From Pseudomonas mucidolens (lineage in GTDB: Bacteria; Pseudomonadota; Gammaproteobacteria; Pseudomonadales; Pseudomonadaceae), in NCBI RefSeq assembly GCF_900106045.1, contig NZ_LT629802.1, forward strand, positions 1,550,001 through 1,614,000: a stretch of DNA of 64,000 bases. The letters are read 5' to 3'. The position numbers and the translations under genes are program-made. How positions within the stretch are numbered: position 1 is the first letter of the stretch; every line of letters begins with the position of its first letter. Under the pieces are notes generated by a model. That model saw nothing but the letters and a program-made list of their open reading frames with translations. It searched no databases and had not been told where the DNA came from. Positions 40,128-49,856 of this stretch are shown here, in pieces.

Positions 40128-40646
40128 ATGGCTACGCCAGCGTATATGTCCATCACAGGTACCAAACAGGGCCTGATCACTGCCGGTGCGTTCACCGCTG
40201 ACTCGGTCGGCAACACTTATCAGGAAGGTCATGAAGACCAGGTCATGGTTCAGGGCTTTAGCCACGAAGTGATCATTCCTCGCGATCCGCAATCGGGTCA
40301 ACCGACCGGTCAACGCGTTCATAAGCCTGTCAAAATCACCAAGGTGTTCGACAAGTCCTCGCCGCTGCTGCTGGCTGCACTGACGTCCGGCGAGCGCCTG
40401 ACTGAGATTACCATCCAGTGGTATCGCACCTCGGCAGCGGGTACTCAAGAGCACTACTTCACCACCAAACTCGAAGACGCGATCATCGTCGACATCAAGG
40501 ATTACATGCATAACTGCCAGGATCCGTCGAATTCGCACTTCACGCATCTGGAAGACGTTGAATTCACCTACCGCAAAATCACCTGGACCCACGAAGTGTC
40601 TGGCACCTCCGGTTCTGATGACTGGCGCACCCCAGTCGCAGGCTGA
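40128..40646 (+). CDS. hcp: T6SS tube protein Hcp (TssD)
   Basis: The 172-residue protein forms the hexameric rings of the inner tube and can carry small effectors. It starts MATPAYMSITGTKQGLITAG, the usual Hcp2-type N-terminus, and includes HKPVKITKVFDKSSPLLLAA and FTYRKITWTHE. AAGGAAC is the ribosome-binding site. It is the first gene of the rightward unit and is followed by a strong hairpin before vgrG, which fits its need to be made in large excess. Confidence 0.97.
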   Translation: MATPAYMSITGTKQGLITAGAFTADSVGNTYQEGHEDQVMVQGFSHEVIIPRDPQSGQPTGQRVHKPVKITKVFDKSSPLLLAALTSGERLTEITIQWYRTSAAGTQEHYFTTKLEDAIIVDIKDYMHNCQDPSNSHFTHLEDVEFTYRKITWTHEVSGTSGSDDWRTPVAG

Positions 40647-40733: not shown

Positions 40734-42827
40734 ATGTTCGCGTCGGCCAATGCTGCGCATTTTGCGTTATTGATCCCTTCTGTTCGCAACGACTTCAAGG
40801 TCCTCGCTTTCGAGGGTACGGAAGCGATCAGCAGCTTGTATGCGATCCAGATTGAGCTCGTCAGCGAGTCGCCGGATTTCGACCTTGAGCGCCTGCTCGG
40901 GCAGCCGGCTTTTCTGCAGTTTGGCCTGACTGGGGAAGGCATGCATGGGCATATCGAGGACGTGCTGGTGGGCGAGGCGGGCAAGCGCCTGACCCGCTAT
41001 CAGTTGACCTTGGTGCCGGCCTTGCACTATCTGCAATTCAGCCACAACCAACGGATTTTCCAACACCTGACGGTGCCGCAGATCGTGGCCAAAGTGCTCC
41101 AGGGTCACGGGATTCAGGCCGATGCGTTTACCTTTAATGTCAGCACCAGCCCAGAGCGCGAATACTGCACGCAATATGGAGAAAACGACTTCGAGTTCAT
41201 CCAGCGGTTGTGCAGTGAGGACGGGATTTCGTGGCACCACCAGCACAGCCAGGATGGCCATCAGTTGGTATTCACTGATGATCAGACTTACTTCCCTAAA
41301 CTGGGTGCAACACCTTATCAGCAAGGCTCTGGCCTGGCCGCGGATCACCCGGTCGTCAGCCAGTTCTCCATGCGTTTCAATACCCGAACCAGCACCACCA
41401 CGCGGCGGGGCTATGACTTAAAACGCCCAAGCCAGTTGCTGGAAAGCCAATTCACTGCCGAGTTCAGTCCTGCACTTGAAGATTACCGCTACCCGGTGCT
41501 GCATGAAAATGAAAAGCTCGGCAAACAGATTGCCCGGCAGGCGCTGGAGCGGCACCGTGCCGATTATCAGTTGGCCGAGGGTAAAAGCGACCAGCCAACC
41601 CTGCGCAGTGGCCACTTCTTTGACCTGACCGAACATCCGCGTCAGCAGTGCAACGATTTGTGGTTGTTACTCAGCGTGACGCACTCCGGTAAGCAGCCCC
41701 AGGCTCTTGAGGAATCAGTTACTAGCGAGGTTAAATCTGAAGACGGTTTTACCCAAGGTTACCGTAATACCTTCAGCGCGATTCCCTGGGACGTGTTCTA
41801 CCGTCCGGCGCTGGTCACGCGTAAATCGGTATTGGTCAGTCAGACCGCTCGAGTCACCGGTCCAGCAGGGGAGGAAATCTTTTGCGATGAGTACGGGCGG
41901 GTTAAGGTCGAATTCCATTGGGACCGCGCCGAACTGGGCAGTGACAAGAGCAGTTGCTGGCTGCGGGTGTCATCCAGCTGGGCGGGGGAAAGTTTTGGTG
42001 CGGTAACCATTCCGCGCATCGGCATGGAAGTGGTGGTGACCTACCTGGAAGGTAATCCCGACAATCCGTTGATTACGGGCTGTGTGCCGAACAAGGTCAT
42101 GCCTGTACCGTACCCCTTGCCGGCGAACAAAACCAAAACCGTCCTGCGTAGCCAAAGCTCGCCCGCCAGTGGTGGCTACAACGAGCTATCGATTGAAGAT
42201 CGTAGCGGCCAGGAACTGATCTACCTGCGCGCTCAGCGTGACATTGAACAGGTAATCCTCAACGACAGTGACACCAAGATCGGTAACGATCGCCGCGAGC
42301 AAATTACTCACGACAGTCACACCCTGATCAATAACGACCGCTTTGAGCAGGTGGACAACAACAGTTCCAGCTTGATCAAGGGTGACGAACTGCACACCAC
42401 CCAAGGTCTGCGTAACACGGTGATCGGTGGTAACGAACTGATCAGCATCACCGGTAACAGCAGCACTACGGCAGACGGTACGCTGGTGATTCAGGCAGGT
42501 ACACAAGCCCATGTCACCGCTGCCAACGTGGTGATCAATGCCGGAATGAGCTTGACGTTCCAGGCAGGTGGCCAACACATTCTCATCAGCGCAGGCGGAA
42601 TTTTCAGCAGCGTGCCCATCGTTCAGGGAGGTGTACCTGCATCGGGCGCAGCGGCTACGTCAGCGCTGTCGGTGATTCCTGTGGCCGCGTTGACAATGAT
42701 CGTCAACACCCTCCCCATGGAAGCGCTGCTCAAACAAAACACTATTTTCCGTGAGGCCACCTCCGGAATTTGTCCGGTGTGTGATGCTGCCCAAGAACGG
42801 TTGGAAGCCGAGGGGGCTCAAGCATGA
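40734..42827 (+). CDS. vgrG: T6SS spike protein VgrG (TssI)
   Basis: The protein has 697 residues from ATG 40734 (MFASANAAHFALLI), with AAGGA about eight bases upstream; a frame extension to 40686 is rejected. The trimeric spike combines gp27- and gp5-like parts: the N-terminal hub (1-370; EFIQRLCSEDGISWHHQHS is a hallmark), an OB-fold (DEYGRVKVEFHWDR, CWLRVSSSWAG, IGMEVVVTYLEGNPDNP), and a beta-helix of repeats to about 640. The last 60 residues (ALSVIPVAALTMIV, then GICPVCDAAQERLEAEG) are a non-repetitive tail likely to recruit the DUF4123 chaperone or the effector. Confidence 0.96.
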   Translation: MFASANAAHFALLIPSVRNDFKVLAFEGTEAISSLYAIQIELVSESPDFDLERLLGQPAFLQFGLTGEGMHGHIEDVLVGEAGKRLTRYQLTLVPALHYLQFSHNQRIFQHLTVPQIVAKVLQGHGIQADAFTFNVSTSPEREYCTQYGENDFEFIQRLCSEDGISWHHQHSQDGHQLVFTDDQTYFPKLGATPYQQGSGLAADHPVVSQFSMRFNTRTSTTTRRGYDLKRPSQLLESQFTAEFSPALEDYRYPVLHENEKLGKQIARQALERHRADYQLAEGKSDQPTLRSGHFFDLTEHPRQQCNDLWLLLSVTHSGKQPQALEESVTSEVKSEDGFTQGYRNTFSAIPWDVFYRPALVTRKSVLVSQTARVTGPAGEEIFCDEYGRVKVEFHWDRAELGSDKSSCWLRVSSSWAGESFGAVTIPRIGMEVVVTYLEGNPDNPLITGCVPNKVMPVPYPLPANKTKTVLRSQSSPASGGYNELSIEDRSGQELIYLRAQRDIEQVILNDSDTKIGNDRREQITHDSHTLINNDRFEQVDNNSSSLIKGDELHTTQGLRNTVIGGNELISITGNSSTTADGTLVIQAGTQAHVTAANVVINAGMSLTFQAGGQHILISAGGIFSSVPIVQGGVPASGAAATSALSVIPVAALTMIVNTLPMEALLKQNTIFREATSGICPVCDAAQERLEAEGAQA

Positions 42828-43390
42828 CGTCCATACCCCCAAAAAATGGACTGCTCCTGCTTGACGGCGCTCAGTATGACGACGCTTTTGATTGGTTGAG
42901 CGAACACTACGGTCCCGACAATCCCCTGGCACTCCTCAAGGGAACACCGTATGAGCCCATTGCCGGGGCCGGGCCATTCTTACTCAATGCCTCATTCGGC
43001 AGTGCCGCCTATAACGAGTGGTGGGGCGGCGGCGACTTGCAGCGAGGTGTATGGCTGGGCTCTCTTAAAAGCGCCAATCAATTGCTTCCCATCCTGCAAC
43101 GACGCTTACGCATTTTCGATGAGCAGCGCCGCGAATTTTGGTTGCGCCTGGCTGACGGTCCCGTGCTGAATCGCGCACGGTTGGCCGGTGCCCAATGGCC
43201 TGCTGGTTTTTGGTGTGGCGTGGATAGCGTCTGGTTGCGACATGGCGGCGCCTCCGTGTGTGCGTGGACGAACGAAACGCCTGAGCTTGACTCTGCTATG
43301 GCGGATAACGGTTTAGCGGCACAAATCATCTTGCCCAATGCGCTCTTGCACGCGCTCAGCTTACCCGCCAACACGGAACAACATTCATGA
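42824..43390 (+). CDS. DUF4123 effector chaperone (Tap/TEC type)
   Basis: The 188-residue protein belongs to the DUF4123 family, adaptors that load a specific effector on VgrG. LLLDGAQYDDAFDWLSEHYG near the start and LADGPVLNRARLAG are typical. It overlaps the vgrG stop codon by four bases (ATGA), and its own stop codon overlaps the effector start the same way, so vgrG, chaperone and effector are made as a coupled set. DUF4123 proteins are generally not secreted. Confidence 0.9.
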   Translation: MTSIPPKNGLLLLDGAQYDDAFDWLSEHYGPDNPLALLKGTPYEPIAGAGPFLLNASFGSAAYNEWWGGGDLQRGVWLGSLKSANQLLPILQRRLRIFDEQRREFWLRLADGPVLNRARLAGAQWPAGFWCGVDSVWLRHGGASVCAWTNETPELDSAMADNGLAAQIILPNALLHALSLPANTEQHS

Positions 43391-46083
43391 GCCCACACAA
43401 CAATCAGGCACCTTACGGGACATGCCCGCTTTTAGCCGCTGTGTTGCCTCTGCGCTATGCTTTGGGTCCCACAGCAGCTGTCGATATCGGTGCCTATGGT
43501 CTGCCCCCTCTGAACGGGCAGTTTCCAGATCTTGGGCCGCGCCATCCTGACGTGACCGAGCAAGACCTTAATTACACCTCGCGCTTGCTGCGTGATGGTT
43601 GGCTCTACGTCTGGGAAAGCGCTCCACCCAAGTTGGTGGAATATCAGGTCGAATCAGCTCTACTCACCCAAACCTCACGGGCAGGACGGGTTATTGATAC
43701 TCGAACCCAACCACACCTGCTGCTCAGAGCTGGCGATTCCGCCGGTTTGGTGTGGTCGCCAGTGCGATGGAGTGAGCCGCAGTATCAGGCCGCAAAAAAA
43801 GACCCCGCCGTGCGTCAGCGCATCATGCGCAGTTTTGTGCCGGGTGCTGCACCGTTCAGTGGTCAAGTGGACGCTATCAACAAGCAGATTGGCGAATACA
43901 GCGATGCAACGCGCTACGGCTGGAGCAGTGAGCCGGAAACGGAGCACGCGCCCAACTGGCTGAAAGTGCTCAAGCAGATGGCGCGTTGCGAACAGCACAC
44001 TTATGCGGTCATTGATGATGCCTGGGGCGTGCTGCTCGATCTCGCCGCGCTGATGCGCGCCCGGAGCGCGGGGTTTGACAGTTATCAGGAACATCACGCC
44101 GAAGAGTGGGCCATTGCGGGTGTTTTAAAGTCCTTGAGCGAAAATGACGCGCAACTAAAAACGCAGTTACCCTCAATCACTCGCTATGACGAGTTGAGCC
44201 GCGCCTGGAAAGACCAGAATACGCAGGAAGACCGCTATAGCACCGACATGCGCCGGCTGGCGCAGCTCTGGGTCGATTGGTTCAACACCTTGCAAGTGAC
44301 TGGCCCGTCCAGCATGGACACCGCGTGTGGCCACTTCGACATCTCTCAGCCAGCCAGTCGTGAGGCCTTGGAATTGCATTTCGCTGCCGCCTGCCTAGGC
44401 CCGGCGAACACCAGTGCAGGAGCCAAGGCCATAACGTTAAACCTTGGAGGTGATGCGCAAGGCAAACCCTGGTTGCTCTGGGCATTACTTGGGTTACCCA
44501 AAAGGCTTGGCATTGGAGAAATAAAATACCTGATCGACCTGAGCGATGCGGCCCACGACAATGGAGCATCGCTAAAAGAGGGTGTCACTCAATTGGCTAA
44601 AGCCTTTGGCTATGCAGAGGCGATGAACAAGGCGGCTGAAAAACTGAGTCAACTGGCTCCAGCATCCAGTATGGAAGCTTTATTTCTGTCCGTCGCGCCT
44701 GCTGCTGGGCTGCACTTGCACCAAGCGGAAAATGCTGCCAGCACTGCAGGGCGCATCTACATGGCCGCCGCGTTAGCCCGCAGTGGGCAGCGTATTCAAA
44801 CCTTGGGTATCACACCGCGCCAACTGGGCGAGTGGTACAGCGACTTGATAGGTACCCGCAACACACTGCCTGCCAGACTCAACGTTACACCTCTTGCCGG
44901 TGCTGTGAGCGAAAGCATCCCGTTTATGCATCTGGTACCCGCGAGCACCAAGCTGCCGCCCTTGCCGGTCAACCTCCTAGCGAGCGCTGATCTGAGCAGC
45001 GTGTTTGACTTGAAGAACGCGCTGAGTAAGGCGCCGATCAAGTCGGTTGTGACACTGATGGCGGGGGTGAATTTTGTTTGGTCTGGGAAGGTATTCGTTG
45101 ATGATGAAACGGCCAAAAGTGCCTTTGGGGCAGTAGGGGCATTATTTGGAGTAGGCGCAGCAGGCGCAGCGGTTGTTCAGCGAGTGGGCGAGGTTAACTG
45201 GGCTTCGGCTGTCCGCCAAAGCGGAAGCACGTCGATTTCATCACGGCTACTTTTGGCCAGGGCTTTGTGGCACACCGCCATTACTGCTTTGGCGCAAAGC
45301 GCCTTTCTGGCATTCGACGTCGTGCTTTATGGGGTAGACGCCTTTGAGGCCTACAAAGCGGGCGACTTTGACACCATGACCGCGAACTTGGCAGTGGTCA
45401 GTGCTTCGCTCGCCAGTATCAAGATCCAGGTCCAGGCGTTCCGAGCGCTACGAGTCGCTCGGGCTGCTGTGATAGCCGGGGATGCGGCGACTATTGCCAG
45501 GGGGCTCAACGTAGTGCCGCACCTGGGAGCCAAGCTACTGGGTCTCGCGGTGGTGATTGTGGGCGGGGTCATTGCCCGTCTTTATACAGCAGACTCGCCG
45601 CTGGAAAAATGGGTGAAAAACAGCCACTTTGGCATCCGTCCGGACGACACCTGGTCAAACAGTTACATCCTTTCCATGGATAATCTGTATCCACTTCTTT
45701 TCCCCATCAGCGTTGAGGCCTATCGGTTAGCAGAGCTCAACCCTTACCAAGGACAAGTTGTCTCCACTTACCTGTTGCTAAAGCTGCCCGGCGAAAACGT
45801 GGAGCTGACCGACGGTATGATTCATTTCACCGGCCAGGAAGTTTGGGGCGACACACTCGGATATCACTCCGATAAAATCCAAAAGGTCGAGTGGACAGGT
45901 AAAGACTTTGCTCGGCATAGCGGTACCCGCGTTCCTGTGCCAGCCGGCATCACCCCTTATCGTCGTGTGTACCATGAGGACGGTGTTAGAGACTTGCGGC
46001 GCATCGAGGGCGATTTGATCTATTCCCCTCGTGAAGGACTGACGCTGCCTTCAGTGAAGATCATGGAGCGAGCTTGGATATGA
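43387..46083 (+). CDS. VasX-like T6SS membrane-targeting effector
   Basis: The protein has 898 residues. The N-terminus (CPLLAAVLPLRYALGP at 13-28, then RLLRDGWLYVWE) resembles the VasX/BTH_I2691-type effector N-terminal region, which follows DUF4123 chaperones. The central part to about residue 540 is soluble and helical. Hydrophobic segments at about 550-565, 579-598, 630-650, 663-682 and 715-733 suggest insertion into target inner membranes, as in colicin-like pore formers. The last 165 residues are polar and end MERAWI. No catalytic motif is seen, so pore formation is inferred. The stop overlaps the first immunity gene as ATGA. Confidence 0.8.
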   Translation: MSPHNNQAPYGTCPLLAAVLPLRYALGPTAAVDIGAYGLPPLNGQFPDLGPRHPDVTEQDLNYTSRLLRDGWLYVWESAPPKLVEYQVESALLTQTSRAGRVIDTRTQPHLLLRAGDSAGLVWSPVRWSEPQYQAAKKDPAVRQRIMRSFVPGAAPFSGQVDAINKQIGEYSDATRYGWSSEPETEHAPNWLKVLKQMARCEQHTYAVIDDAWGVLLDLAALMRARSAGFDSYQEHHAEEWAIAGVLKSLSENDAQLKTQLPSITRYDELSRAWKDQNTQEDRYSTDMRRLAQLWVDWFNTLQVTGPSSMDTACGHFDISQPASREALELHFAAACLGPANTSAGAKAITLNLGGDAQGKPWLLWALLGLPKRLGIGEIKYLIDLSDAAHDNGASLKEGVTQLAKAFGYAEAMNKAAEKLSQLAPASSMEALFLSVAPAAGLHLHQAENAASTAGRIYMAAALARSGQRIQTLGITPRQLGEWYSDLIGTRNTLPARLNVTPLAGAVSESIPFMHLVPASTKLPPLPVNLLASADLSSVFDLKNALSKAPIKSVVTLMAGVNFVWSGKVFVDDETAKSAFGAVGALFGVGAAGAAVVQRVGEVNWASAVRQSGSTSISSRLLLARALWHTAITALAQSAFLAFDVVLYGVDAFEAYKAGDFDTMTANLAVVSASLASIKIQVQAFRALRVARAAVIAGDAATIARGLNVVPHLGAKLLGLAVVIVGGVIARLYTADSPLEKWVKNSHFGIRPDDTWSNSYILSMDNLYPLLFPISVEAYRLAELNPYQGQVVSTYLLLKLPGENVELTDGMIHFTGQEVWGDTLGYHSDKIQKVEWTGKDFARHSGTRVPVPAGITPYRRVYHEDGVRDLRRIEGDLIYSPREGLTLPSVKIMERAWI

Positions 46084-47057
46084 ATACGCCAGAGCAACCC
46101 CGTAGTAACGCGGCATCCGCAATAAAACTCGAAGCGGACAAGCCCACTGGCGAACAGCCAATGGAGCTGTTTATTACTGACGAACATACCGAGTATTACC
46201 TCGCGCTAAAAGCTGGGGGAGATTCGGATCGAGGGCTGCTCACCGGTGTATTGGCAGGAATAGGGGGGATAGGAGGTATAGGGCTGGGAATTTTCAGTTT
46301 TTTGCAGAGTGGTGACCTTAAAGGGTTAAATATAATGCTCGCCATATGTATTCCTTTGTGCGTTCTTCCTTTTCTATGGGAAACCCTACGCCCATTACCT
46401 CTGCCCATCCTATTTAACCGCCGCACCCGCGAGGTGTACTACGATCACGACGGGGTACTGTTCCACGCGCCGTGGGATGGTATTCAAGCGGCGGCCCATG
46501 AATTTCAATTGGTAGGTACGAACATCGGCAGTATTCAATGTGCCTCGCTGGAGATCCGAGTTTGGCAATTCGAAAAACCGGAAGCGGCTTTGATGATCAG
46601 CCTCGGTGCGCCCTTTGGAAAATCACTGGCGATGCAAAAAGGTTTTTGGGAATACATCCGTGCCTACATGAACAACGGCCCTTACTTCGACGAACACGGT
46701 AATCACAGCGAATCCGACGCCTTTGTAAAAAGCCAGCTGGCCGTGCAATTCAAAATGAGCGACAACTTCAAGCAAACCCTGGCGCAATTAAAGCAGGCGA
46801 AAAAGGAAGCGGGCGGCAAGAATTACTTAGGCGCCGAGGATACTGCAAAGCTGATACTCGAGCCAATGTTTTACCCTCTGGCTCGAATCCAGGAATTCAC
46901 CTACAGCATTGCTAAACGCCGCTCCCGCAACCGCTGGCCGAGTGTTGTTACTGAGCGCTTGAAAGCCAATGGCCCTACCGCGCGTCTTGTTGATTTGGAA
47001 TGTGAGAAAGGGGCGGCTGCAGGAGTTGAGTGCAACGCAGTTACTGAATTGAAGTAG
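46080..47057 (+). CDS. Putative immunity protein 1 (DUF6708-like, two membrane helices)
   Basis: The protein has 325 residues from ATG 46080, which overlaps the effector stop codon (ATGA); the TTG six bases earlier is less likely. A polar N-terminus (1-50) is followed by two helices (about 52-76 and 82-101) and a large cytoplasmic domain with LFNRRTREVYYDHDGVLFH, WQFEKPEAALMISLG and YIRAYMNNGPYFDEHG. Inner-membrane immunity proteins with this layout protect against pore-forming effectors, so I infer it neutralises the adjacent effector. Its C-terminal region (QFKMSDNFKQTLAQL) differs from copies 2 and 3. Confidence 0.75.
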   Translation: MNTPEQPRSNAASAIKLEADKPTGEQPMELFITDEHTEYYLALKAGGDSDRGLLTGVLAGIGGIGGIGLGIFSFLQSGDLKGLNIMLAICIPLCVLPFLWETLRPLPLPILFNRRTREVYYDHDGVLFHAPWDGIQAAAHEFQLVGTNIGSIQCASLEIRVWQFEKPEAALMISLGAPFGKSLAMQKGFWEYIRAYMNNGPYFDEHGNHSESDAFVKSQLAVQFKMSDNFKQTLAQLKQAKKEAGGKNYLGAEDTAKLILEPMFYPLARIQEFTYSIAKRRSRNRWPSVVTERLKANGPTARLVDLECEKGAAAGVECNAVTELK

Positions 47058-47077
47058 GGGTTGTATGCTGCATTCCC

Positions 47078-47197
47078 ATGACCTCAATAATCATTTCAAT
47101 CGTTTATGGCGCATGTATCGAGGGTGAGTTGATCTATTCCCCACGTGAGGGGCTGACATTGCCTTCAGTGAAAATCATGGAACGAGCTTGGATATGA
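47078..47197 (+). pseudogene. Effector 3'-end remnant ahead of immunity copy 2 (39 codons)
   Basis: The frame MTSIIISIVYGACIEGEL then IYSPREGLTLPSVKIMERAW ends at a TGA that overlaps the next immunity ATG. Its last 26 codons match the end of the effector protein with one Asp-to-Glu change, yet carry several silent DNA differences. This suggests it derives from another effector allele, not from a recent copy. Confidence 0.7.
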
Positions 47198-48168
47198 ATA
47201 CGCCAGAGCAATCCCGTAGTAACGCGGCATCCGCAATAAAACTCGAAGCGGACAAGCCCACTGGCGAACAGCCAATGGAGCTGTTTATTACTGACGAACA
47301 TACCGAGTATTACCTCGCGCTAAAAGCTGGGGGAGATTCGGATCGAGGGTTGCTCACCGGTGTATTAGGTGGAATAGGTGGCTGCGTATTGGTGGGGCTT
47401 GGCCTTATAGGAGCAATGCAAGGTAAGTTCGATATCACCTATATGACATTTTCTATAGGCATACCTTTATTTCTGGTACCGTTCCTATGGGAAACACTAC
47501 GCCCATTACCTCTGCCCATCCTATTTAACCGCCGCACCCGCGAGGTGTACTACGATCACGACGGGGTACTGTTCCACGCTCCGTGGGATGGTATTCAAGC
47601 GGCGGCCCATGAATTTCAATTGGTAGGCACGAACATCGGCAGTATTCAATGTGCCTCGCTGGAGATCCGAGTTTGGCAATTCGAAAAACCGGAAACGGCT
47701 TTGATGATCAGCCTCGGTGCGCCCTTTGGAAAATCACTGGCGATGCAAAAAGGTTTTTGGGAATACATCCGTGCCTACATGAACAACGGCCCTTACTTCG
47801 ACGAACACGGTAATCACAGCGAATTCGATGCCTTTGTAAAAGGCCAACTGGCTGTGCGCCCAAAAATGAGCGATAGCTTTAAAAGAACACGAGAGCAAAT
47901 AAAGCAGGCGAAGCGAGAGGCGGGCGGCAAGAACTACTTGAGTGGCTCTGACGTTATAAAACTAATACTTGAGCCTATGTTTTATCCCCAGGCTCGAATC
48001 CAGGAATTCACCTACAGCATTGCAAAGCGCCGCTCCCGCAACCGTTGGCCGAGCGTTGTTGTTGAACGCTTGAAAGCCAATGGCCCTACCACGCGTCTTG
48101 TTGATTTGGAATGTGAGAAAGGGGCGGCTACAGGAGTTGAGTGCAACGCAGTTACTGAATTGAAGTAG
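47194..48168 (+). CDS. Putative immunity protein 2 (DUF6708-like)
   Basis: The 324-residue paralogue of copy 1 is nearly identical in residues 1-55 and in the central domain (YYDHDGVLFHAPWDGIQAAA). Its membrane segment is quite different (VLGGIGGCVLVGLGLIGAMQ then YMTFSIGIPLFLVPFLW), while its C-terminal part (RPKMSDSFKRTREQIKQAKR) matches copy 3. Because membrane helices often decide immunity specificity, this copy may protect against a different effector variant. It is preceded by an effector-tail remnant and has no cognate effector in the window. Confidence 0.7.
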   Translation: MNTPEQSRSNAASAIKLEADKPTGEQPMELFITDEHTEYYLALKAGGDSDRGLLTGVLGGIGGCVLVGLGLIGAMQGKFDITYMTFSIGIPLFLVPFLWETLRPLPLPILFNRRTREVYYDHDGVLFHAPWDGIQAAAHEFQLVGTNIGSIQCASLEIRVWQFEKPETALMISLGAPFGKSLAMQKGFWEYIRAYMNNGPYFDEHGNHSEFDAFVKGQLAVRPKMSDSFKRTREQIKQAKREAGGKNYLSGSDVIKLILEPMFYPQARIQEFTYSIAKRRSRNRWPSVVVERLKANGPTTRLVDLECEKGAATGVECNAVTELK

Positions 48169-48188
48169 GGGTTGTATGCTGCATTCCC

Positions 48189-48308
48189 ATGACCTCAATA
48201 ATCACTTCAATCGTTTATAGCGCATGTATCGAGGGCGATTTGATCTATTCCCCACGTGAGGGGCTGACATTGCCTTCAATGAAAATCATGGAACGAGCTT
48301 GGATATGA
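48189..48308 (+). pseudogene. Effector 3'-end remnant ahead of immunity copy 3 (39 codons)
   Basis: It has the same structure as the remnant at 47078: MTSIITSIVYSACIEGDL then IYSPREGLTLPSMKIMERAW, with Val changed to Met. It overlaps the immunity ATG by four bases. The frame is kept open in all three remnants, although they differ by point changes. Confidence 0.7.
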
Positions 48309-49282
48309 ATACGCCAGAGCAACCCCGTAGTAACGCGGCCTCCGCAATAAAACTCGAAGCGGACAAACCCACCGGCGAGCAGCCGATGGAGTTGTTTATT
48401 ACCGATGGACATACCGAGTATTACCTCGCGCTAAAAGCTGGGGGGGATTCGGATCGAGGGTTGCTCACCGGTGTATTGGCAGGAATAGGGGGGATAGGAG
48501 GTATAGGGCTGGGACTTTTCAGTTTTTTGCAGAGTGGCGACCTTAAAGGGTTAAATATAATGCTCGCCATATGTATTCCTTTGTGCATCCTTCCTTTTCT
48601 ATGGGAAACCCTACGCCCATTACCTCTGCCCATCCTATTTAACCGCCGTACCCGCGAGGTGTACTTCGATCACGCCGGTAAACTATTCCACACCCCATGG
48701 GATGGTATTCAAGCGGTGACCAACGAATTTCAATTGGTGGGTCCGAGCATCGGCAGTATCCAAAGTGCCTCGCTGGAGATTCGAGTTTGGCAATTCGAAA
48801 AACCGGAAACCGTTCTGATGGTCAGTCTCGGGTCACCCTTTGGCAAATCACTGATGTTGCAAAAAAGCTTGTGGGAATACATTCGCGCCTACATGAATAA
48901 CGGACCGTATTTCGATGAGCACGGAAATCACAGTGAGTCCGATGCCTTTGTAAAAAGCCAACTAGCTGTGCGCCCAAAAATGAGCGATAGCTTTAAAAGA
49001 ACACGAGAGCAGATAAAACAGGCGAAGCGAGAGGCGGGCGGTAAGAACTACTTGAGTGGCTCTGACGTTATAAAGCTAATACTTGGGCCTATGTTTTATC
49101 CCCAGGATCGAATCCAGGAATTCACCTACAGCATTGCAAAACGCCGCTCCCGCAACCGTTGGCCGAGCGTTGTTGCTGAACGCTTGAAAGCCAATGGCCC
49201 TACCACGCGTCTTGTTGATTTGGAATATGAGAAAGGCGCGATTTCAGGAGTTGAGTGTAACGCAGTTATTGAATTGAAGTAG
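48305..49282 (+). CDS. Putative immunity protein 3 (DUF6708-like)
   Basis: The 325-residue paralogue has membrane segments almost identical to copy 1 (VLAGIGGIGGIGLGLFSFLQ), a divergent central domain (YFDHAGKLFHTPWDGIQAVT then GPSIGSIQSASLEIR, TVLMVSLGSPFGKSLMLQ), and a C-terminus like that of copy 2. The combination shows exchange of segments between units. It has no cognate effector of its own in the window. Function as an orphan immunity protein is inferred from similarity to copy 1. Confidence 0.7.
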   Translation: MNTPEQPRSNAASAIKLEADKPTGEQPMELFITDGHTEYYLALKAGGDSDRGLLTGVLAGIGGIGGIGLGLFSFLQSGDLKGLNIMLAICIPLCILPFLWETLRPLPLPILFNRRTREVYFDHAGKLFHTPWDGIQAVTNEFQLVGPSIGSIQSASLEIRVWQFEKPETVLMVSLGSPFGKSLMLQKSLWEYIRAYMNNGPYFDEHGNHSESDAFVKSQLAVRPKMSDSFKRTREQIKQAKREAGGKNYLSGSDVIKLILGPMFYPQDRIQEFTYSIAKRRSRNRWPSVVAERLKANGPTTRLVDLEYEKGAISGVECNAVIELK

Positions 49283-49303
49283 GGGGTTGTATGCTGCATT
49301 CCC

Positions 49304-49423
49304 ATGACCTCAATAATCACTTCAATCGTTTATGGCGCATGTATCGAGGGCGAGTTGATCTATTCCCCACGTGAGGGGCCGACATTGCCTTCAGTGAAAA
49401 TCATGGAACGAGCTTGGATATGA
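49304..49423 (+). pseudogene. Effector 3'-end remnant ahead of truncated copy 4 (39 codons)
   Basis: It reads MTSIITSIVYGACIEGEL then IYSPREGPTLPSVKIMERAW, with Leu changed to Pro relative to the effector. It overlaps the ATG at 49420. Confidence 0.65.
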
Positions 49424-49614
49424 ATACGCCAGAGCAACTCCGTAGTAACGCGGCATCCGCAATAAAACTCGAAGCGGACAAGCCCACTGGCGAACAGCCA
49501 ATGGAGCTGTTTATTACTGACGAACATACCGAGTACTACCTCGCGCTAAAAGCTGGGGGGATTCGGATCGAGGAATGGGTTGAGCCAGAAAAGCAAGGTA
49601 TGGGTACCCGCTAA
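49420..49614 (+). pseudogene. Truncated immunity copy 4
   Basis: The first 47 residues match the other copies (MNTPEQLRSNAASAIKLEAD onward to LALKAGG). A G-run then has six Gs where copy 3 has seven, which shifts the frame, and homology ends about 15 bases later at a junction near 49575. The remaining residues (IRIEEWVEPEKQGMGTR) are unrelated to the family. The two membrane helices and the whole cytoplasmic domain are lost, so it cannot work as an immunity protein. Confidence 0.75.
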
Positions 49615-49856
49615 ATCATCCCGAACCAGTCAACGCCCGCGCATTCGACTGAGGCAGAACGGCAGCGGCTGAAGGATTTCAATAACGATGGCGTGCCGCC
49701 TGGCGCCTGCTGATCACTTGCCGCCGAGAGCCAGGCCGTGGGTATTTGCAATGCATTGACGCGAGAGCCGACCCAAACTCCATCTTGTACAGTTCAGGCG
49801 GTTACCGCCCCCGCAGGGCAAATGTTGACGGCCCCGTCTGGTTCTCGTCGGGGTGA
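49615..49856. other. Unassigned remnant at the end of the T6SS island
   Basis: Past the TAA, one frame carries on from copy 4 as IIPNQSTPAHSTEAERQRLK then DFNNDGVPPGAC and a stop (49710). It has protein-like composition and could be the tail of another polymorphic toxin or of an unrelated gene broken by the rearrangement. No gene can be supported between it and ada. Confidence 0.35.

What the first reader, a model, noticed from the sequence alone, without database searches (positions are those of the whole stretch)
46004..49614. Mosaic tandem array of T6SS immunity genes, each with a fossil of the effector 3' end
Seen directly: one full effector gene is followed by three full and one broken paralogous membrane-protein genes with a period of about 1.11 kb. 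Each repeat begins with about 80 bp matching the 3' end of the effector. The paralogues share blocks in different pairs: copies 1 and 3 share the membrane segment, copies 1 and 2 the central domain, copies 2 and 3 the C-terminal region. The fossils carry silent differences from the resident effector gene. Inference: the locus has captured new effector-immunity cassettes by recombination in the shared 3' tail, keeping old immunity genes as protection against relatives, with gene conversion between copies.
Basis: partly seen in the sequence, partly recalled or inferred. Interest (0 to 1): 0.85.

Follow-up and report, generated by a model that had tools for sequence, protein, structure and literature searches.

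The report
Shuffled array of toxin-immunity genes
Behind a gene for a probable pore-forming weapon, this Pseudomonas carries several antidote genes built from two interchangeable recognition parts, one of which matches the antidote of a related species, so the strain may resist relatives' weapons as well as its own.

Summary
The array is real: three intact and one broken immunity gene, period 1111-1115 bp, each unit starting with 81 bp of effector 3' end, and truly mosaic. The effector is VasX_N/BTH_I2691-like; the immunity genes are DUF6708-like, just under Pfam's cut-off. The mosaic blocks that differ most are two modules: a membrane hairpin (aa 58-98) and a C-terminal stretch (220-262). In 15 effector-immunity pairs each module covaries with its own effector segment, with weak or no cross terms. 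Copy 2's hairpin is 97% identical in DNA to that of Pseudomonas sp. ANT_H4, whose effector differs in the matching segment. A second, ATGA-chained array of six in the same genome is mosaic in the same two places. The effector tail was exchanged between species: 309 identical bp with ANT_H4. Immunity arrays, retained orphans and DUF6708 poly-immunity are already published. Specificities are inferred, not tested.

The parts
40128..40646 (+). Hcp (PF05638)
   Evidence: Pfam
40734..42827 (+). VgrG spike (start codon chosen by me)
   Evidence: TIGR03361 617.7 bits, Pfam
42824..43390 (+). Tap adaptor (DUF4123)
   Evidence: PF13503 1.2e-11
43387..46083 (+). Effector, 898 aa, VasX_N; BTH_I2691 match below NCBI's cut-off; pore-former by family only
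   Evidence: hydrophobic segments 553-571, 579-597, 632-650, 717-735
45064..45174 (+). Effector segment P1 (aa 560-596), covaries with the immunity membrane hairpin
45214..45396 (+). Effector segment P2 (aa 610-670), covaries with immunity aa 220-262
45793..46101 (+). 309-bp tract identical to Pseudomonas sp. ANT_H4 (effector 3' end plus immunity start)
46080..47057 (+). Immunity copy 1, adjacent to the effector, probable cognate; hairpin type I
46251..46373 (+). Module 1 of copy 1 (aa 58-98, membrane hairpin)
46737..46865 (+). Module 2 of copy 1 (aa 220-262)
47012..47102 (+). IS30-family terminus, 91 bp from the tip; encodes the last 14 residues and stop codon of copy 1
47117..47197 (+). Effector-tail fossil 1
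47078..47197 (+). Possible 39-aa leader ORF (IS end fused in frame to effector tail), overlapping copy 2 by ATGA; coding not shown
   Evidence: open in all three fossils
47194..48168 (+). Immunity copy 2, hairpin type II as in ANT_H4
48123..48213 (+). IS30-family terminus, second
48228..48308 (+). Effector-tail fossil 2
48305..49282 (+). Immunity copy 3, hairpin type I with the C-terminal module of copy 2
49238..49328 (+). IS30-family terminus, third (tip diverged)
49343..49423 (+). Effector-tail fossil 3
49420..49573 (+). Immunity copy 4, broken

Best explanation
A T6SS locus with a probable pore-forming effector carries a small library of immunity genes whose specificity lies in two exchangeable modules. 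History, in likely order: (1) an IS30-family element inserted at the 3' end of an immunity gene; (2) an illegitimate joint fused 91 bp of its end to an effector 3' tail, making a unit of tail + immunity gene + IS end; (3) unequal crossing-over amplified the unit to four; (4) recombination between copies and with alleles of other species swapped module 1 (membrane hairpin) and module 2 (C-terminal helices); (5) the effector 3' end was exchanged with an ANT_H4-like lineage. How it works: each immunity protein sits in the inner membrane and recognises two segments of the pore-forming region, hairpin with P1 and C-terminal module with P2. Copy 1 is the probable cognate of the resident effector; copy 2 fits ANT_H4-type effectors in module 1; copy 3 shares the hairpin type of copy 1 and the C-terminal module of copy 2. 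The fossils keep the translation start (ATGA) of each copy. Shown from sequence: units, mosaic, IS end, shared tract, covariation in close relatives. Inferred: order of events, membrane topology, binding, protection by extra copies.
For: Mosaic runs. Module 1 differs at 472 sites/kb between copies 1 and 2, beside flanks at 12-18/kb. Copy 2 aa 58-98 and 99-117 are 96.7% and 100% identical in DNA to ANT_H4, but aa 118-190 only 79% (98.6% to copy 1). Double dissociation in 15 pairs: P1-hairpin partial r 0.70 and P2-C-module 0.81 (0 of 20,000 permutations each), cross terms 0.02 (8427 of 20,000) and 0.13 (1600 of 20,000); the main terms hold with 12, 23 and 19 pairs. Scan of 1064 window pairs, 40 aa, max-statistic p: 0.0013 (P2) and 0.009 (P1) with 15 pairs, 0.0027 and 0.0003 with 23. 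In 5 of 5 loci with a complete effector C-terminal half and two or more close immunity genes (window, L009, L015, L016, L056), an extra copy differs from copy 1 in hairpin type, typed by eye. IS30 end: left boundary within a few bp of the same tip, beside unrelated flanks, in 8 loci printed; a clear inverted tip 1.08-1.11 kb away in 4 of 6 loci checked; transposase annotated in L101. 309-bp tract. Second array: six genes, six different module combinations; ANT_H4's second copy there matches this strain's first copy in both modules (97% and 100%). [quoted passage not shown]
Against: No functional test. P1, P2 and module borders were chosen after viewing the same alignments. With 20-aa windows only the P2 cell passed the max-statistic (0.015), and with 12 pairs none did. 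With 30-aa windows and 23 pairs a third, unexplained cell also passed (effector 790-819 with immunity 11-40, p 0.013). With 23 pairs the P2-hairpin cross term was 0.245 (24 of 20,000). Seven distant pairs alone gave no covariation, and the second family did not reproduce it: module cells at best p 0.13, top cells elsewhere. The resident P1 is 70% identical to type I L066r but also 65% to type IV L016 and 62% to type III L020 and L064r, so its typing rests on a motif seen by eye; module 2 of copies 2 and 3 is not far behind copy 1 in likeness to other cognates (0.74-0.79 against 0.84). No complete effector with the C-terminal module of copies 2 and 3 was found among the loci examined; its other bearers L013 and L019 have lost most of theirs. 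The fossil tail has no close living parent: best match 89%, the ANT_H4 tail. Effector model too poor to use (pLDDT 46.5).
Confidence: 0.57

Rival explanations
1. Sequential displacement: each extra copy is the leftover of a separate, complete effector-immunity module pushed back by a new one (Kirchberger model).
For: Heterotypic extra copies in 5 of 5 arrays, typed by eye; effector-tail fossils between immunity genes in other genomes with other joints: L013, L016, L056, L061 and L155; genes of both immunity families behind one effector in L024 and L061.
Against: In the window the three joints are the same apart from point changes and one 1-bp indel, with 91 bp of IS30 end and the same effector codon; separate events would be expected to give separate joints. 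Copies 1 and 2 are nearly identical outside the modules up to aa 190.
Confidence: 0.2
2. Plain tandem duplication for dosage, with differences that mean nothing for specificity.
For: The same joint in all three units; roughly 1-8% divergence in shared blocks, spacers and fossils.
Against: Identity is not uniform: 472/kb in module 1 beside 12-18/kb; copy 2's module 1 is another species' allele; modules covary with effector segments in close relatives.
Confidence: 0.13
3. Extra copies are drifting remnants kept by chance; only copy 1 is functional.
For: Copy 4 is broken; fossil-to-fossil differences are mostly replacements; decayed effector tails sit behind single immunity genes elsewhere.
Against: Copies 2 and 3 are intact; copies 1 and 3 differ by 13 silent and 0 replacement changes in aa 191-219 and by 10 and 1 in aa 1-57, though this may predate the array; arrays of up to eight intact genes exist in the genus for the second family.
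Confidence: 0.1

Closest known systems
Vibrio cholerae T6SS immunity gene arrays (Kirchberger et al. 2017, PMC5361080; outline and sections 10 and 13 read)
   Same: One effector followed by several immunity genes, extra ones of other types; a partial effector left in an array; homology-facilitated illegitimate recombination proposed.
   Different: There duplication was argued against and whole modules were displaced. Here the joints look like one IS30-linked joint that was amplified, and two small modules inside the genes are swapped.
Stenotrophomonas rhizophila tse3-tsi3 poly-immunity cluster (PMC13340143; passages read)
   Same: BTH_I2691-type effector with vgrG and tap, DUF6708 immunity protein, followed by 12 homologous genes in 14 kb.
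   Different: No module mosaic, effector fossils or IS joint mentioned in the passages seen; its genes were not compared here.
Pseudomonas putida Tke5-Tki5 (PMC12909789; outline, passages and section 13 read)
   Same: Effector family, vgrG-tap-effector-immunity order, immunity acts on the pore-forming helical region.
   Different: One cognate immunity gene; I saw no mapping of specificity residues in what I read. Kinship of Tki5 to the genes here was not tested.
CDI ionophore toxins with two-helix CdiI immunity (PMC11630599; passages read)
   Same: Membrane immunity hairpin with polymorphic predicted contact residues and allele-specific protection.
   Different: Small CdiI proteins of 72-100 residues and another delivery system; no second C-terminal module in the passages seen.

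Membership tests
T6SS VgrG-Tap-effector-immunity module | VgrG, DUF4123 adaptor and effector in one operon beside T6SS core genes | tested here: met
BTH_I2691 / VasX-like effector | VasX_N domain and NF041559 above cut-off | tested here: inconclusive
   VasX_N 56.4 bits (cut-off 27) met; NF041559 131.9 bits against a cut-off of 150, not reached
BTH_I2691 / VasX-like effector | Pore-forming activity | not testable with these tools
   Four hydrophobic regions in the C-terminal half; no assay
DUF6708 | PF20455 above gathering score | tested here: not met
   24.6 and 24.8 bits against 27 for copies 1 and 3; all 34 aligned proteins match at E 0.01 or better. Called DUF6708-like, not filed as a member
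Immunity gene array by sequential displacement | Extra immunity genes of another specificity type than the resident one | tested here: met
   by sequence type only
Immunity gene array by sequential displacement | Independent joints for each displaced module | tested here: not met
   the same IS30-effector joint three times
IS30-family element (the remnant at the joints) | Terminal inverted repeat with the same tip in unrelated flanks, IS30 transposase | tested here: met
   for the source element: inverted tips 1.08-1.11 kb apart in L101, L103, L104, L109; a 15-bp part in L106, none clear in L105; transposase checked in L101 only. The window holds 91-bp ends at 72-80% identity and no transposase

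The most novel reading that the evidence does not exclude
Combinatorial immunity: a two-lock recognition code (membrane hairpin against P1, C-terminal helices against P2), with arrays acting as a recombining library from which new immunity specificities are assembled by module swapping between copies and species. The same design appears at two T6SS loci of one genome whose immunity proteins share only 22-24% identity.
Probability: 0.42. Interest if true: 0.78.

Novelty: new variant of a known kind. Interest (0 to 1): 0.62.

Why it matters
It turns a descriptive array into a testable recognition code: natural alleles of two short modules should predict which relatives' weapons a strain survives. 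It suggests a concrete route (IS end, tail fossil, amplification, module exchange) for building poly-immunity, and it offers natural cognate/extra-copy reciprocals between this strain and ANT_H4 to test it with.

Tried and rejected
Solved-structure sequence search: none for the effector at E 0.001, one hit at E 0.032 for the immunity protein, taken as chance. Fold search of the immunity model: none of 200 listed matches at E 0.001 or better. Effector model discarded. Spacer against the downstream flanks of seven relatives: no better than shuffles; its source was found later as an IS30 end. IS30 end in the rest of the own genome: only the three array copies; transposase relatives at 45-50% identity only. 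Downstream of copy 4: a stretch of about 80 bp at 76-83% identity in 7 of 143 other genomes, not interpreted. Covariation in distant pairs and in the second family: not found. A draw of the genus around another centre brought no matching genome beyond those.

Rows used and dropped. Family 1, 15 close pairs: window, L009, L010, L011, L012, L014, L015, L016, L017, L020, L021, L023, L056, L064, L066; L017 and L021 have an effector frame break further upstream and entered by their intact C-terminal part, and L011 holds unknown residues. Dropped: L013, L018, L019 (effector reduced to its tail), L022 (cut by the contig end), L024 and L025 (no family 1 effector). Of 11 further candidates 8 gave pairs; L050, L054 and L077 did not; L057 and L061 (36-38% identity) were not entered. 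The distant-only test left out L082 as a near-duplicate of L081. Family 2: 3 of 17 pairs (L159, L167, L168) dropped as incomplete.

Papers: PMC5361080 outline and sections 10 and 13; PMC12909789 outline, passages and section 13; PMC13340143, PMC8189183, PMC11630599 passages; PMC11751169 one reference-list passage; others only in listings. That module mosaics, IS30 joints or two-module covariation are unreported rests on nine searches of an open-access library; a preprint cited there on orphan immunity genes in gut bacteria was not held.
Full report
What is there. The window is G000:C1:1550001-1614000 of a single-contig 5.85-Mb genome of the genus Pseudomonas (its matches are all Pseudomonas). 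T6SS core genes and hcp lie beside vgrG, a DUF4123 adaptor, an 898-aa effector with a VasX_N domain and a sub-threshold BTH_I2691 match, and then the array. Units start at 46003, 47117, 48228 and 49343. Three immunity genes are intact; the fourth departs after codon 47. Copies 2 and 3 are 86% and 87% identical to copy 1 in protein. They are DUF6708-like, 24.6-24.8 bits against a cut-off of 27.

Mosaic. Of 195 informative sites, runs by odd-one-out copy number 42, against 104 or more in 20,000 shuffles. Between copies 1 and 2, aa 58-98 differ at 472 sites/kb and aa 220-262 at 302/kb, while aa 1-57, 99-117 and 118-190 differ at 12-18/kb. The predicted immunity fold (pLDDT 79) has helices 53-77 and 80-103 over module 1, strands at 110-174, and helices 228-243 and 252-283 around module 2; module 1 covers two hydrophobic segments.

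Fossils and joint. The 81-bp tails differ from the resident tail mostly silently (8 of 9, 7 of 8, 7 of 9 changes), but not from one another (1 of 3, 1 of 2, 0 of 3). So the fossils probably descend from another effector allele that was under selection while it diverged, and have since drifted; the counts among fossils are small. From the IS tip to the fossil there are 105 or 106 bp. The first 91 match the end of IS30-family elements at 72-80% identity: P. syringae-group plasmid hits lie over an annotated IS30 transposase gene and its end. In 8 loci printed, the match begins at the same tip beside unrelated flanks; of 6 loci checked, L101, L103, L104 and L109 show an inverted tip 1.08-1.11 kb away, L106 a 15-bp part, L105 none. 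The last 14 residues and the stop codon of each immunity gene are thus IS-encoded. The three joints are the same apart from point changes and one 1-bp indel, which points to one founding event and later amplification.

Exchange with ANT_H4. The nearest relative found is Pseudomonas sp. ANT_H4 (L023), with a 91% identical effector and one immunity gene. Window and ANT_H4 are identical over 45793-46101, 309 bp, while 42824-45750 has 10% mismatches; at that rate such a run has a probability of about 7e-15 at a given place. Copy 2 is 96.7-100% identical to ANT_H4 over aa 58-117 and 79% in the next block.

Two-module code. In 15 pairs of effector and first immunity gene, distance in effector aa 560-596 follows distance in immunity aa 58-98 (partial r 0.70), and effector aa 610-670 follows immunity aa 220-262 (0.81), each 0 of 20,000 permutations; the cross terms are 0.02 (8427 of 20,000) and 0.13 (1600 of 20,000). 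Dropping near-duplicates or adding eight distant pairs keeps the two main terms; with 23 pairs the P2-hairpin cross term is 0.245 (24 of 20,000). A scan of 1064 window pairs of 40 aa finds the same two spots, max-statistic p 0.0013 and 0.009 with 15 pairs and 0.0027 and 0.0003 with 23; with 30 aa and 23 pairs a third cell (effector 790-819, immunity 11-40) also passes, p 0.013, unexplained. With 20-aa windows only the P2 cell passes (0.015), and with 12 pairs none. Seven distant pairs alone give nothing, and the second family does not repeat it. L016 and L017 look by eye like natural recombinants with matching halves in both proteins. The assignment of copy 1 to the resident effector rests on its place, on motifs seen by eye and on module 2; the resident P1 is 70% identical to type I L066 but also 65% to type IV L016 and 62% to type III L020.

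Elsewhere in the genus. 33 of 398 genomes hold a relative at E 1e-30. In 5 of 5 loci with two or more close immunity genes behind a resident effector (window, L009, L015, L016, L056) an extra copy differs in hairpin type, typed by eye. Effector-tail fossils between immunity genes occur in L013, L016, L056, L061 and L155 with other joints; in L016 and L056 the upstream immunity gene ends inside the fossil in another frame. In L009, L015 and L018 little or none of the tail remains. A reading I favour but did not test: tails shorten with age until only the stop/start overlap is left.

Second array. At 4112585-4118222 of the same genome a 1090-aa VasX_N effector is followed by six DUF6708-like genes chained by ATGA overlaps, 22-24% identical to copy 1 of the window. 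Outside two modules they are 79-99% identical in DNA; at 90% identity module 1 falls into three types and module 2 into four, and all six combinations differ. Of 259 genomes 24 hold this family at E 1e-60, with rows of up to eight genes overlapping by 4 bp.

Known and new. Arrays with retained orphans are published for V. cholerae (PMC5361080), competitive benefit of orphans was measured there with exceptions (PMC8189183, passages), and a DUF6708 poly-immunity cluster is published for S. rhizophila (PMC13340143, passages). The IS30-founded joint, the mosaic in two fixed modules at two loci and the covariation were not found in my searches. I rate it a new variant of a known kind.

Noticed in passing
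L026 5586-11223 (G000:C1:4112585-4118222): Second T6SS locus of the same genome: six ATGA-chained DUF6708-like genes, mosaic in the same two modules, six different combinations.
   Followed up: yes
   Followed up: partly
L013, L018, L019 (named Pseudomonas genomes): Effector reduced to about its last 105-130 codons in front of intact immunity genes; in L013 a VgrG cut at about residue 328 runs up to it.
   Followed up: partly
L016 7915-8001, L056 11310-11396: Immunity gene ends inside an out-of-frame effector tail, so its stop codon is fossil-derived; a joint unlike the window's.
   Followed up: partly
window 47078-47197, 48189-48308, 49304-49423: 39-aa open frame made of IS end plus effector tail, open in all three fossils, ATGA-overlapping the next immunity gene.
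   Followed up: partly
L011, L012, L014, L020, L022 downstream of the immunity gene: By eye, a shared stretch of about 100 bp follows a decayed effector tail in several species; its nature is unknown.
   Followed up: no
window 49633-49714: About 80 bp after the broken copy recur at 76-83% identity in 7 of 143 other genomes searched.
   Followed up: no
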